Below, piece after piece: positions 24,677-26,825 of a stretch of 64,000 nucleotides of DNA (position 1 is its first letter; each line of letters begins with the position of its first letter). The translations under genes and the position numbers were made by a program. The notes beneath the pieces were generated by a model. It saw only the letters and a program-made list of their open reading frames with translations. It did not search any database and was not told the origin of the DNA. The stretch is from Desulfovibrio mangrovi (GTDB lineage Bacteria > Desulfobacterota > Desulfovibrionia > Desulfovibrionales > Desulfovibrionaceae): the NCBI RefSeq assembly GCF_026230175.1, contig NZ_CP104208.1:2542001-2606000 (forward strand). The letters are read 5' to 3'.

Positions 24677-24710
24677 AATCCCCCGATGCTCACGGCAGCG
24701 GGGGATTTTT
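24677..24710 (+). terminator. Rho-independent terminator of plsY-thrC
   Basis: Nine-base stem AATCCCCCG with its complement, an inner small TGC/GCA stem, and a T-run. It marks the edge of the GC-rich core region; the sequence after it is AT-rich. Confidence 0.9.
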
Positions 24711-24740
24711 CATTTTATTTCACGCAATAAAATCATTAAA

Positions 24741-24857
24741 ACAAGTTATAGCTTTCTTATTAAGCATAAAAAAGAAAGTTAAAACTTTCTTTTAAATTTT
24801 AATATTACAAGTTATAGCTTGTTTACAAACGACACAATTACAAGCTATAACTTGTAA
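24741..24857. promoter_or_regulatory. Array of four palindromic operators, 33 bp apart
   Basis: Four sites share the core AAGYTAWARCTT: 24741-24756 (ACAAGTTATAGCTTTC), 24772-24791 (AAGAAAGTTAAAACTTTCTT, nine-base perfect arms), 24807-24822 (ACAAGTTATAGCTTGT) and 24840-24855 (ACAAGCTATAACTTGT). Their centres are at 24748.5, 24781.5, 24814.5 and 24847.5, exactly 33 bp apart, about three helical turns, so bound dimers would lie on nearly the same face of the DNA. The likely binder is the Xre-type protein encoded next. Confidence 0.75.
24822..24851 (+). promoter_or_regulatory. Promoter of the Xre/Fic operon inside the operators
   Basis: -35 TTTACA (five of six), 18-nt spacer, -10 TATAAC (five of six). 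The -35 starts at the last base of the third operator and the -10 is the centre of the fourth, so binding there should block RNA polymerase. Confidence 0.6.
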
Positions 24858-24892
24858 AATATTATGAACAGGTTTTCTCTGTGGATCAGGAT

Positions 24893-25348
24893 ATGAGCTA
24901 TAACACACTGAAAATACGCCAAATTGATACAACTCTCGCGCTCTGGCGCAAGGCTGCACTCCCTCCGCGTCCCGGCAAAGGATGGATTCATGCCATACGA
25001 ACTGCGCTCAGCATGAGTTCCGCCGCCCTCGGTGCACGTCTCGGCATGACTGGTGCCGGTGTTCTGAGCCTTGAGGCGGCGGAAGCTACAGACTCAATCA
25101 CCCTTGGCACCCTCCGCAAAATTGCCACAGCTCTGGATTGCGAGCTGCAATACGCACTGGTGCCCAAACATGGCATTGCAGAAACACTGCAGAAGCGAGC
25201 CAAGGAAGTGGCGCGCGAACGAGTACTGCGGGTGAGCCACACCATGGCACTGGAAGAACAGGCTGTTGATAGCGAACTTACCCGTAGCCAGATTGAAGAA
25301 CTGGCAGAGACCCTGCTGCGCAAACGGACAAAGGAACTGTGGCGATGA
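24893..25348 (+). CDS. Xre-type regulator/antitoxin, 'mobile mystery protein A' family
   Basis: A 151-residue cytoplasmic protein. Residues about 34-90 are a Cro/C1-type helix-turn-helix (SMSSAALGARLGMTGAGVLS, then TLRKIATALDCELQYALVP). The rest is a charged helical tail with the family's most recognisable segment, RVSHTMALEEQAV. That segment fits the Fic inhibitory motif [S/T]xxxE (Thr117, Glu121), though Glu replaces the usual Gly/Asn after it. From memory this is the TIGR02612 family, almost always found beside a Fic protein on mobile DNA. The start may be ATG 24893 or GTG 24881 (AGG eight bases upstream of the GTG). The stop overlaps the next start (ATGA). Confidence 0.85.
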   Translation: MSYNTLKIRQIDTTLALWRKAALPPRPGKGWIHAIRTALSMSSAALGARLGMTGAGVLSLEAAEATDSITLGTLRKIATALDCELQYALVPKHGIAETLQKRAKEVARERVLRVSHTMALEEQAVDSELTRSQIEELAETLLRKRTKELWR

Positions 25349-25926
25349 AGTATACATATCCTCCCGGCGCGACTCCGCTGAACGCGGATGAAGCATCCGG
25401 CCTGATTCCCGACCACATCACCACACAGGATGCCCTCAACGAATGGGAACAGCAGAACATTCTTGATGGGTTGAACTGGGCACTGAAGCAACACAAGCGC
25501 GAATTGCTCGACGACCTCTTTGTGCGGGATCTTCATAAAAAGATGTTCGACAAAACTTGGAAGTGGGCTGGCACCTACCGCAGGAGCAACAAGAACATCG
25601 GGATAGAATGGCAGACGATTCCCGTTGAACTCAGGAATCTCTTTGCCGATGTGTCCTTCCAGATAGAACACAAGTCCTTTCCTCCTGACGAACTCGCAAC
25701 CCGTTTTCACCACCGGCTTGTGGCAATACATCCTTTCCCTAACGGTAATGGACGGCATGCCCGTATGATGGCGGACTTGCTGATACAACGCCTCGGCGGC
25801 GAACCGTTCAGCTGGGGCGGACGCTCTCTTGTGCAGCACGGGGACGAGCGGGAGAGATATATTGCCGCGCTGCAGGCAGCAGACAAGGAGGACTACACCT
25901 CCCTCATGGAGTTTGTCCGGAGCTAA
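25345..25926 (+). CDS. Fic/DOC-family protein, 'mobile mystery protein B' type (putative AMPylating toxin)
   Basis: A 193-residue protein of the Fic superfamily, which usually transfers AMP or another nucleotide part onto target proteins. The active-site loop HPFPNGNGR is at residues 129-137, with catalytic His129 and the phosphate-binding GNGR complete; the metal-binding position is Asn133 where canonical Fic proteins have Asp or Glu. The family's N-terminal WKWAGTYR segment (residues 72-79) is present. AAGGAAC lies eight bases before ATG 25345. Translation is coupled to the upstream regulator through an ATGA overlap, the usual layout of antitoxin followed by toxin. The target is unknown. 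Confidence 0.88.
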   Translation: MKYTYPPGATPLNADEASGLIPDHITTQDALNEWEQQNILDGLNWALKQHKRELLDDLFVRDLHKKMFDKTWKWAGTYRRSNKNIGIEWQTIPVELRNLFADVSFQIEHKSFPPDELATRFHHRLVAIHPFPNGNGRHARMMADLLIQRLGGEPFSWGGRSLVQHGDERERYIAALQAADKEDYTSLMEFVRS

Positions 25927-26015: not shown

Positions 26016-26053
26016 CAAAACCCCCGCTGTTCATTGGGCAGCGGGGGTTTTTT
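26016..26053. terminator. Bidirectional terminator after the Fic gene
   Basis: Eleven-base stem AACCCCCGCTG with its complement, nine-base loop, T-run on the right and A-run on the left. It separates the Fic gene from the converging flavoprotein gene. Confidence 0.9.
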
Positions 26054-26058
26054 ATATG

Positions 26059-26715
26059 TTAACCGGCAAGCGGACGAGCCATGCGAGAACCAAGCTCATA
26101 GGCGCGCTGACAGTCCTGCGGAAAGACCTCTTCGCGGCGCTTCCCCTTTGCGTTGCCATCAAACTTTGCCGACTCGTACTTGCCGTAATCGGAATACTGC
26201 AGGGTATCCGTACAGAGCATCACCTCACAGGGGCCGAAATGGGCCGACAACATTCGCTGCATAAAGGCAAAGTGAGGGCGGTAGCCGTAGCTGTCGATCA
26301 TCTCTTCCGGAACATTCATGGTATAGAGCAAAGCCGTGGGAATAACCCTGCCAAACTCGCAATGCCCGTCGACCGCATAGGGATTGTACGGGAAACACAG
26401 GCGTTCAAAACAGGCGCGCATAGCTGCCGTTTCGGTTCCGTAATAAATGGGAGAGCCAAGAATCAGCGCGTCTGCCTTCGCAATGCGCTCAAGTACCGGG
26501 GTAAGGTCATCCTTTACCGCACAGACACCGCGCACCTTCCGGTCCACGCGCTTGCAGGCGAAACAACTGATGCAGCCGGAGAATTGCAGGTCATACAGGT
26601 TAACCAGTTCCGTTTCCGCACCTTGAGAGGCCGCACCGGCCAGTGCATGCTCCAGCAGTGATACGGTATTCCAGTTCTTCTTACGCGGGCTGCCGTTCAG
26701 GGCTATAACGTTCAT
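26059..26715 (-). CDS. Flavodoxin-family (iron-sulfur flavoprotein-like) FMN oxidoreductase
   Basis: A 218-residue cytoplasmic flavoprotein. It opens with NVIALNGSPRKKNWNT, the FMN-phosphate loop of the NADPH-dependent FMN reductase fold, followed by a cysteine cluster FSGCISCFACKR...GVC that resembles the ligands of archaeal and clostridial iron-sulfur flavoproteins, and by ILGSPIYYGTETAAMRACFERL. It probably moves electrons in redox balance or xenobiotic reduction; donor and acceptor are unknown. The second ATG (26715) is chosen because GGAG lies seven bases before it but is too close to the first ATG (26721). It is a single gene. Confidence 0.85.
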   Translation of the reverse strand: MNVIALNGSPRKKNWNTVSLLEHALAGAASQGAETELVNLYDLQFSGCISCFACKRVDRKVRGVCAVKDDLTPVLERIAKADALILGSPIYYGTETAAMRACFERLCFPYNPYAVDGHCEFGRVIPTALLYTMNVPEEMIDSYGYRPHFAFMQRMLSAHFGPCEVMLCTDTLQYSDYGKYESAKFDGNAKGKRREEVFPQDCQRAYELGSRMARPLAG

Positions 26716-26825
26716 TTGCATTCTCCGTCGGGTTGGATTGAATAAGGTGGCCCATAGTAGCCCATGGAAACTTTTTTACAAGTACCCACTATATTGTGCC
26801 GTAGGTACCGATTATATACTATTGG

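What the first reader, a model, noticed from the sequence alone, without database searches (positions are those of the whole stretch)
24893..25926. Xre-type regulator plus Fic protein: a probable toxin-antitoxin module of the 'mobile mystery' pair
Seen: a 151-residue helix-turn-helix protein and a 193-residue Fic protein with intact HPFxxGNGR overlap by four bases (ATGA) in an AT-rich patch framed by terminators in a GC-rich chromosome. Known: families TIGR02612 and TIGR02613 travel together on mobile DNA, and many Fic proteins are toxins silenced by a partner helix bearing [S/T]xxxE[G/N]. Inference: the TMALEE stretch (Thr117, Glu121) of the regulator could be that silencing helix, so one protein would both repress transcription and block the Fic active site. 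Asn133 at the metal position of the Fic loop hints at altered chemistry.
Basis: partly seen in the sequence, partly recalled or inferred. Interest (0 to 1): 0.75.

Follow-up and report, generated by a model that had tools for sequence, protein, structure and literature searches.

The report
Self-repressing Fic toxin-antitoxin pair
Two overlapping bacterial genes most likely form a toxin and its keeper, in which one protein may both switch the genes off at a row of evenly spaced DNA sites and plug the toxin's active site.

Summary
24893-25348 (mmyA, 151 aa) and 25345-25926 (mmyB, 193 aa) overlap by ATGA and pass the curated cut-offs of TIGR02612 and TIGR02613: a known family with no function described in the papers I could search.

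Three things go beyond the name. (1) In 83 of 83 distinct loci the proposed silencing stretch keeps Met118, Glu121 and Gln123; [S/T]xxxE is kept in 71, the full Fic-inhibition motif [S/T]xxxE[G/N] in only 15, not in the window. (2) mmyA is preceded by four 16-nt palindromes at an exact 33-nt period; such spacing recurs in 49 of 80 relatives against 6 of 992 AT-rich control stretches. (3) No intact MmyB with its upstream DNA at hand lacks MmyA.

So: probably a Fic toxin whose Xre-type antitoxin represses its own operon and plugs the active site. The plugging is inferred: two AlphaFold read-through fusions (pTM 0.53, 0.52) did not show it. 'Asn133 hints at altered chemistry' is weakened: CccR has the same Asn and AMPylates FtsZ (PMC9755527). 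The expected partner of Glu121 is Arg140, not Arg137.

The parts
24677..24707 (+). terminator-like inverted repeat after thrC, followed by TTTTT; upstream border
   Evidence: inverted repeat I5; not called by the scanner
24741..24756 (.). operator box 1, ACAAGTTATAGCTTTC
   Evidence: present in sister genome G006 with other end bases
24774..24789 (.). operator box 2, GAAAGTTAAAACTTTC
   Evidence: in G006 GAAAGCTAAAGCTTTC, two changes that keep the palindrome
24807..24822 (.). operator box 3, ACAAGTTATAGCTTGT
24840..24855 (.). operator box 4, ACAAGCTATAACTTGT; overlaps the first promoter-like hexamer and fills most of the spacer; identical in G006
24837..24865 (+). sigma-70-like promoter (ATTACA - 17 nt - TATTAT), 9 of 12 matches; no more than chance by itself
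   Evidence: 2 found, 1.1 expected from shuffles
24893..25348 (+). mmyA, TIGR02612, Xre-type repressor and predicted antitoxin, 151 aa
24986..25153 (+). helix-turn-helix domain, residues 32-87 (PF01381)
25238..25261 (+). residues 116-123 HTMALEEQ, proposed Fic-silencing segment; Met118, Glu121, Gln123 invariant
25345..25926 (+). mmyB, TIGR02613, Fic-domain protein and predicted toxin, 193 aa
25729..25764 (+). Fic motif HPFPNGNGRHAR, residues 129-140 (His129, Asn133, Arg137 = R1, Arg140 = R2)
26017..26051 (+). intrinsic terminator downstream of mmyB

Best explanation
mmyAB is a two-gene module that works like a class I Fic toxin-antitoxin system with a DNA-binding antitoxin. MmyB is a small Fic nucleotidyltransferase (probably AMPylation of a housekeeping protein; target unknown). 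MmyA binds MmyB through its C-terminal part; the end of its long helix, with Thr117, Glu121 and Gln123, reaches the ATP site, Glu121 pairing with Arg140 of the Fic motif. MmyA dimers, alone or bridged by MmyB, bind the 33-nt phased palindromes over the promoter and shut the operon; loss of MmyA both frees the toxin and opens the promoter. Shown here: gene pair, family, conservation, operator array, linkage, purifying selection. Inferred: toxicity, binding, autorepression, the contact of Glu121.
For: Families over cut-off. MmyA directly upstream of MmyB in 87 of 91 fetched loci, 85 of 89 after removal of two loci fetched twice; three of the other four are cut by a contig end and the fourth (L038) has a truncated MmyB. 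Evolutionary distances of the two proteins correlate (Mantel r 0.887, 82 distinct loci, 0 of 999 permutations). Met118, Glu121, Gln123 and Trp150 are invariant in 83 of 83 distinct loci, [S/T]xxxE in 71 of 83. MmyB carries no [S/T]xxxE[G/N] before its first core helix (except one row, at residue 3) or after the last; 19 other matches lie at 156-163, between core helices. Predicted helix of MmyA ends one residue before the Glu in both fusion models. The Fic part is closest to class I toxins VbhT, Fic-1, EcFicT and to FICD (Z 11.5-13.7 for their best chains). Operator array: four palindromes at 33 nt; score of at least 23 at lag 32/33 in 49 of 80 distinct relatives against 6 of 992 AT-rich control windows of the same loci; 31 of 44 clusters have a passing member, other lag pairs average 2.0 of 82. 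In G006 box 2 changes on both sides and stays palindromic. Decayed copies fit: L039 lost the MmyA HTH and MmyB has Leu for the catalytic His; L068 has a stop inside mmyB with mmyA intact.
Against: Position 122 is Glu, not G/N; the strict motif is met in 15 of 83 loci; position 117 is not S/T in 12 of 83, nor in L134 and L135, where it is His. Neither fusion model docks the segment in the active site; in the L074 model 16 of 50 listed structures align from MmyA residue 107-116 on, near the N-terminal side of the Fic core but not in register with their inhibitory Glu. MmyA C-terminal profile finds no Fic antitoxin among solved structures. A covariation screen (Neff 53) does not single out the segment. 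31 of 80 upstream regions do not pass the array cut, nor do any of 3 loci fetched later. One of 83 loci has Tyr for the catalytic His129 beside an intact MmyA. No toxicity data.
Confidence: 0.6

Rival explanations
1. A toxin-antitoxin module in which MmyA neutralises MmyB in another way, as Phd does with Doc (an antitoxin tail that folds onto the Fic-fold toxin), and Met118-Gln123 serve dimerisation or another contact.
For: Strict inhibition motif missing in 68 of 83 loci; no sequence link to known Fic antitoxins found; fusion models do not dock the segment in the active site. Phd is a DNA-binding antitoxin whose C-terminus folds onto a Fic-fold toxin (PMC4803016, passages).
Against: Invariance of exactly the Glu of the motif, and of S/T in 71 of 83, is what the inhibition helix predicts; MmyB has the GNGRxxR ATP-site residues that such a Glu would face.
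Confidence: 0.22
2. A regulator-enzyme pair that is not a toxin-antitoxin system: MmyB modifies a specific protein (perhaps MmyA itself, tuning repression), useful to plasmids.
For: No toxicity of this family is shown in the passages that I read; 262 of 72,556 plasmid records hold MmyB; in L068 mmyA is intact beside a broken mmyB.
Against: MmyA missing beside no intact MmyB with its upstream DNA at hand, and the catalytic His lost where MmyA lost its HTH, fit a poisonous enzyme better.
Confidence: 0.12
3. A defence module: the pair arrests the cell on phage infection. MmyB's best PADLOC match is candidate defence protein PDC-S04.
For: 82.2 bits to PDC-S04 over residues 24-192; a class Fic/Doc (COG3654, TIGR02613), 7 elements, stands in the table of defence systems of Tn7-like transposons (PMC8649781, passage); nearly absent from phages (1 of 50,697 records at 26% identity; no confirmed relative in the IMG/VR scan).
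Against: No MmyA counterpart among the defence models beyond a generic HTH (20.2 bits); PDC-S04 is itself only a candidate; the neighbours here are housekeeping genes plus an FMN reductase gene. It would add a trigger and not replace the mechanism above.
Confidence: 0.15

Closest known systems
[quoted passage not shown]
   Same: Both proteins over the curated cut-offs, paired, same order.
   Different: Nothing; this is a member. The model descriptions shown give no function; the array and the invariant Glu/Gln are family traits found here.
Class I Fic toxin-antitoxin pairs: VbhTA, EcFicTA, Fic-1-AntF
   Same: Small Fic protein without its own inhibition helix, antitoxin gene directly upstream, Glu with S/T four residues before it at a predicted helix end, Fic fold.
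   Different: MmyA has an Xre-type DNA-binding domain in front; Fic motif has Asn for D/E; residue after Glu is not G/N here; no sequence similarity of the antitoxins found.
CccR of Yersinia pseudotuberculosis (Fic + HTH in one chain)
   Same: Fic motif with Asn at the metal position (HPFGNGNGRTVR), HTH autorepressor acting on palindromes, inhibition helix (passages).
   Different: One chain, class II, HTH at the C-terminus, secreted effector; MmyAB are two proteins with the proposed inhibitor on the repressor.
Phd-Doc
   Same: DNA-binding antitoxin for a Fic-fold toxin; toxin can bridge antitoxin dimers on the operator (passages).
   Different: Different DNA-binding fold; Doc phosphorylates EF-Tu and has another motif (recalled).

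Membership tests
TIGR02612 mob_myst_A | score over 122.6 bits | tested here: met
   145.5 bits, residues 6-150
TIGR02613 mob_myst_B | score over 124.4 bits | tested here: met
   256.9 bits, residues 9-192
mobile mystery pair | A directly upstream of B | tested here: met
   ATGA overlap; 85 of 89 distinct loci
[quoted passage not shown]
   Asn133 in place of D/E here and in 83 of 83 loci; the other fixed positions are kept here
Class I Fic toxin-antitoxin | partner protein with strict [S/T]xxxE[G/N] | tested here: not met
   TMALEE: S/T and Glu kept, residue 122 is Glu; strict motif in 15 of 83 loci
Class I Fic toxin-antitoxin | Fic protein has no inhibition helix of its own | tested here: met
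   in 83 loci the motif occurs only at 156-163 (19 matches) and at residue 3 (1)
Class I Fic toxin-antitoxin | inhibitory Glu pairs with the last Arg (R2) of the Fic motif in the complex | tested here: inconclusive
   two fusion models, pTM 0.53 and 0.52
Type II toxin-antitoxin system | toxin arrests growth, antitoxin neutralises it | not testable with these tools
   needs an experiment
Type II toxin-antitoxin system | autoregulation through an operator | tested here: inconclusive
   palindrome array over the promoter-like site; binding not testable
PDC-S04 (PADLOC candidate defence) | profile match | tested here: inconclusive
   82.2 bits; the library gives no cut-off and no described activity

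The most novel reading that the evidence does not exclude
MmyA is a repressor-inhibitor that is also half of an enzyme: bound to MmyB its Glu121 turns the AMPylase into a deAMPylase, as reported for Fic-1-AntF, while the toxin bridges MmyA dimers along a 33-nt phased array, so that operon activity reads out the state of the Fic active site. A widespread family would thus couple reversible protein AMPylation to transcription through one residue.
Probability: 0.15. Interest if true: 0.78.

Novelty: new variant of a known kind. Interest (0 to 1): 0.52.

Why it matters
The mobile mystery pair occurs in many bacterial phyla and in 262 of 72,556 plasmid records, yet in the three papers whose passages I read it is only named or put in a category; two more I saw only in the listing. 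The invariant Glu/Gln and the operator array give it a concrete, testable mechanism and, if right, a type of Fic antitoxin that carries its own Xre-type repressor domain.

Tried and rejected
Complex modelling. The tool folds single chains, so I used two loci in which mmyA and mmyB lie in one frame and read the stops between them as Gly (L067, 1 stop; L074, 3 stops). The first 150-row alignment put MmyA rows on the Fic part and was dropped; 94 rows (2 fusions, 74 MmyA, 18 MmyB) worked. Both models fold each part well but not their placement (pTM 0.53, 0.52). L067: of the 50 rows shown by VIA-align, 49 cover only the Fic part and 1 (HigA2) only the HTH; Foldseek stretched many FICD alignments over both parts, but at about 25 A rmsd. 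L074: 16 of 50 rows (FICD, C. elegans Fic-1, C. difficile Fic, SoFic, and 4rgl, whose class I did not check) start at MmyA 107-116, opposite residues 5-14 past the inhibitory Glu where its number is known to me or the titles. I take neither as support.

Covariation between the proteins: 85 rows, two of them repeats, Neff 53; top pairs spread over all of MmyA; rejected as underpowered. Met117 goes with Leu130 of MmyB in 8 of 9 rows, but that may be one clade.

VbhA-type antitoxin (PF18495) in 297 genomes of the phylum: 3 weak matches, none over the cut-off, so no local yardstick. MmyA C-terminal profile (38 of 76 loci given) against solved structures: two weak matches, GCN4 and EibD constructs. 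Viral contigs: 95 pattern stretches, none a relative. Natural MmyA-MmyB fusions: none in 91 loci. L134's 305-residue open frame is upstream read-through and not a fusion.

Operator statistic: the cut of 23 was set after seeing shuffles (99th percentile 21). One search used another measure (31 of 82 with 3 or more copies; shuffles about 0.3). In the own genome, three sites are within 2 mismatches of the box, all in the array; the reversed control pattern has 7 chance matches on each strand, so the number alone means little, the clustering does. The promoter call is no better than chance.

Rows dropped before the motif counts: L038, L039, L068 (decayed), L047, L084, L088 (contig ends), the low-scoring second Fic genes in L061, L096, L103, L105, and one each of two loci fetched twice (L032 = L096, L033 = L060); 91 - 6 - 2 = 83. 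Dropped before the 80 upstream regions: also L048, L072, L086 (too little upstream DNA). Searches were run before the repeats were seen; one search recounts the main figures (before: E121 in 86 of 86 rows, 50 of 82, 6 of 1045, Mantel 0.890).

Full report
What is there. Two genes of 151 and 193 codons overlap by ATGA at 24893-25926. They score over the curated cut-offs of TIGR02612 and TIGR02613; Pfam sees an HTH_3 domain at residues 32-87 of the first and a Fic domain at 59-146 of the second. The genome is one contig of 3.95 Mb with one mmyB. Upstream lie a plsY-like gene and a PLP-enzyme gene that I read as thrC, downstream on the other strand an FMN reductase gene and an RF3 gene (prfC).

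Distribution. In the genus, 2 of 10 genomes have MmyA over the cut-off: the window's and G006, at the same place, 91% identical over 3.6 kb. In G003, whose ThrC is 93% identical, thrC and its terminator are followed directly by prfC, so mmyAB and the FMN reductase gene (about 2.2 kb) are extra here or lost there. MmyB is over the cut-off in 5 of 119 genomes of the family and 8 of 395 of the phylum; MmyA in 3 of 99 relatives, the own genome counted each time. A scan of species genomes confirmed 209 relatives and kept the best 80, from proteobacterial groups, Planctomycetes, Bacteroidetes, Spirochaetes, Chloroflexi (Anaerolineales), Cyanobacteria, Gemmatimonadetes and others by record title. Plasmids: 262 of 72,556 records hold MmyB, 238 hold MmyA. 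Phages: 1 of 50,697, at 26% identity; IMG/VR: no confirmed relative among 95 pattern stretches. So it is found on plasmids and chromosomes, hardly in phages.

Pairing. Two loci were fetched twice (L032 = L096, L033 = L060), so the count of distinct loci is 85 of 89. Decay is telling: in L039 MmyA has lost its HTH and MmyB's motif reads LPFANGNGR, the catalytic His gone; L068 has a stop inside mmyB and an intact mmyA. Against this, one of 83 intact pairs has Tyr for His129. The distance matrices of the two proteins agree (Mantel r 0.887, 82 loci). mmyB evolves under strong constraint (dN/dS 0.035).

The silencing segment. In 83 distinct loci MmyA residues Gly30, Trp31, Arg36, Glu61, Glu64, Met118, Glu121, Gln123 and Trp150 never change. 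Residue 117 is T or S in 71 of 83 and Glu121 is always there, but G/N at 122 occurs with them in 15 of 83 and not in the window (per-residue table, segment list). The published motif is [S/T]xxxE[G/N], its Glu pairing with R2, the last Arg of the Fic motif (PMC5033356, PMC3667792, passages). By that rule the partner of Glu121 is Arg140. In L134 and L135, fetched later and not counted, residue 117 is His while Met118, Glu121 and Gln123 are kept. In both AlphaFold models the long helix of MmyA (residues 96-121 and 97-122 of the fusions) ends one residue before this Glu, a place that would suit a Glu at a helix end.

MmyB. The Fic motif is HPFPNGNGRHAR; Asn133, GNGR and Arg140 are invariant in 83 of 83 loci, residue 130 is Pro in 51, Leu in 20, Ala in 10. 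MmyB has no inhibition motif before or after its core, apart from one row at residue 3. Structure comparison of the models' Fic parts gives Z 11.5-13.7 for the best chains of FICD, VbhT, Fic-1 and EcFicT. Asn at the metal position does not forbid AMPylation: CccR, motif HPFGNGNGRTVR, AMPylates FtsZ at Thr8 (PMC9755527, passages).

The operator array. The stretch 24716-24892 is 24% GC; only 0.03% of windows of its size here are as low. It holds four 16-nt palindromes starting at 24741, 24774, 24807 and 24840, exactly 33 nt apart. The fourth overlaps a promoter-like site. In G006 all four are kept; box 2 differs by two changes that keep it a palindrome. Upstream of mmyA in 80 distinct relatives (window included), 26 have a 12-of-14 match at lag 33 and 18 at lag 66; in the first run over 82, shuffles gave 0.2 and 0.0. 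With palindromes added, 49 of 80 pass a cut of 23 at lag 32/33 against 6 of 992 AT-rich windows of the same loci; 31 of 44 clusters at 70% identity have a passing member. The box letters differ between lineages, the spacing hardly does. In three loci looked at later none passes at lag 32/33 (best 22), though L134 and L135 reach 24 and 25 at lag 65. 33 nt is about three helix turns, so repressors would sit on nearly one face (inference).

Mechanism. I infer that MmyA dimers shut the promoter from these boxes and that the C-terminal half of MmyA holds MmyB silent, Glu121 blocking the ATP site. Phd-Doc shows that a DNA-binding antitoxin can hold a Fic-fold toxin and be bridged by it on the operator (PMC4803016, passages). 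Fic-1-AntF shows that such a complex can remove AMP from the target, needing the antitoxin's Glu (PMC13327609, passages). Either could apply here; neither is shown.

What failed. Two fusion models did not resolve the complex (pTM 0.53 and 0.52); in one, MmyA lies near the N-terminal side of the Fic core but out of register with known inhibition helices. Profile search, covariation and a VbhA search added nothing.

What is known. 'Mobile mystery' appears in four papers of the library; I read the passages of two (PMC4750851: MmyB named under regulators of cell division and wall; PMC4725956: listed among mobile elements) and saw only the listing of two (PMC3989490, PMC4886054). TIGR02613 is also in a table of defence systems of Tn7-like transposons (PMC8649781, passage). 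Makarova et al. 2009 list Fic/Doc next to xre 22 times (PMC2701414, passages), so the general idea of Fic-Xre pairs as toxin-antitoxin systems is old. My searches listed no paper whose title or abstract start speaks of the inhibition residue or the operator array of this family; subscription papers are not held, among them Engel et al. 2012 (recalled), who surveyed upstream antitoxins and may have included MmyA.

Verdict. A member of a known but unexplained family that works like a class I Fic toxin-antitoxin pair; two defining positions of class I fail by the letter (Asn133; residue 122), so I do not file it as canonical class I. The family-wide 33-nt array and the invariant Glu/Gln are the new points.

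Noticed in passing
window 24677-24707 and 26017-26051: The terminators on the two sides of mmyAB resemble each other; the stretch 24673-24710 matches the second terminator of G006 at 89% over 38 nt. Possibly a trace of how the module came in.
   Followed up: partly
window 26059-26721 (-): An FMN reductase gene that, like mmyAB, is missing between thrC and prfC in G003.
   Followed up: partly
MmyB residue 130, family-wide: HPF is HLF in 20 of 83 loci; Leu130 goes with Met117 in MmyA in 8 of 9 rows.
   Followed up: partly
L096:1641-2690 and L061, L103, L105: A second, more distant Fic gene lies within a few kb of mmyAB in 4 of 91 loci; that of L096 is a longer protein with STRIEG near its N-terminus, like a class II Fic.
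   Followed up: no
L039: Second mmyAB copy of genome G452: HTH of MmyA replaced by unrelated sequence, MmyB catalytic His is Leu.
   Followed up: yes
L094 upstream of mmyA: A locus titled Gemmatimonadetes carries almost the same palindrome (CAAGTTATAACTTG, up to 2 mismatches) four times at 33-34 nt as the window.
   Followed up: partly
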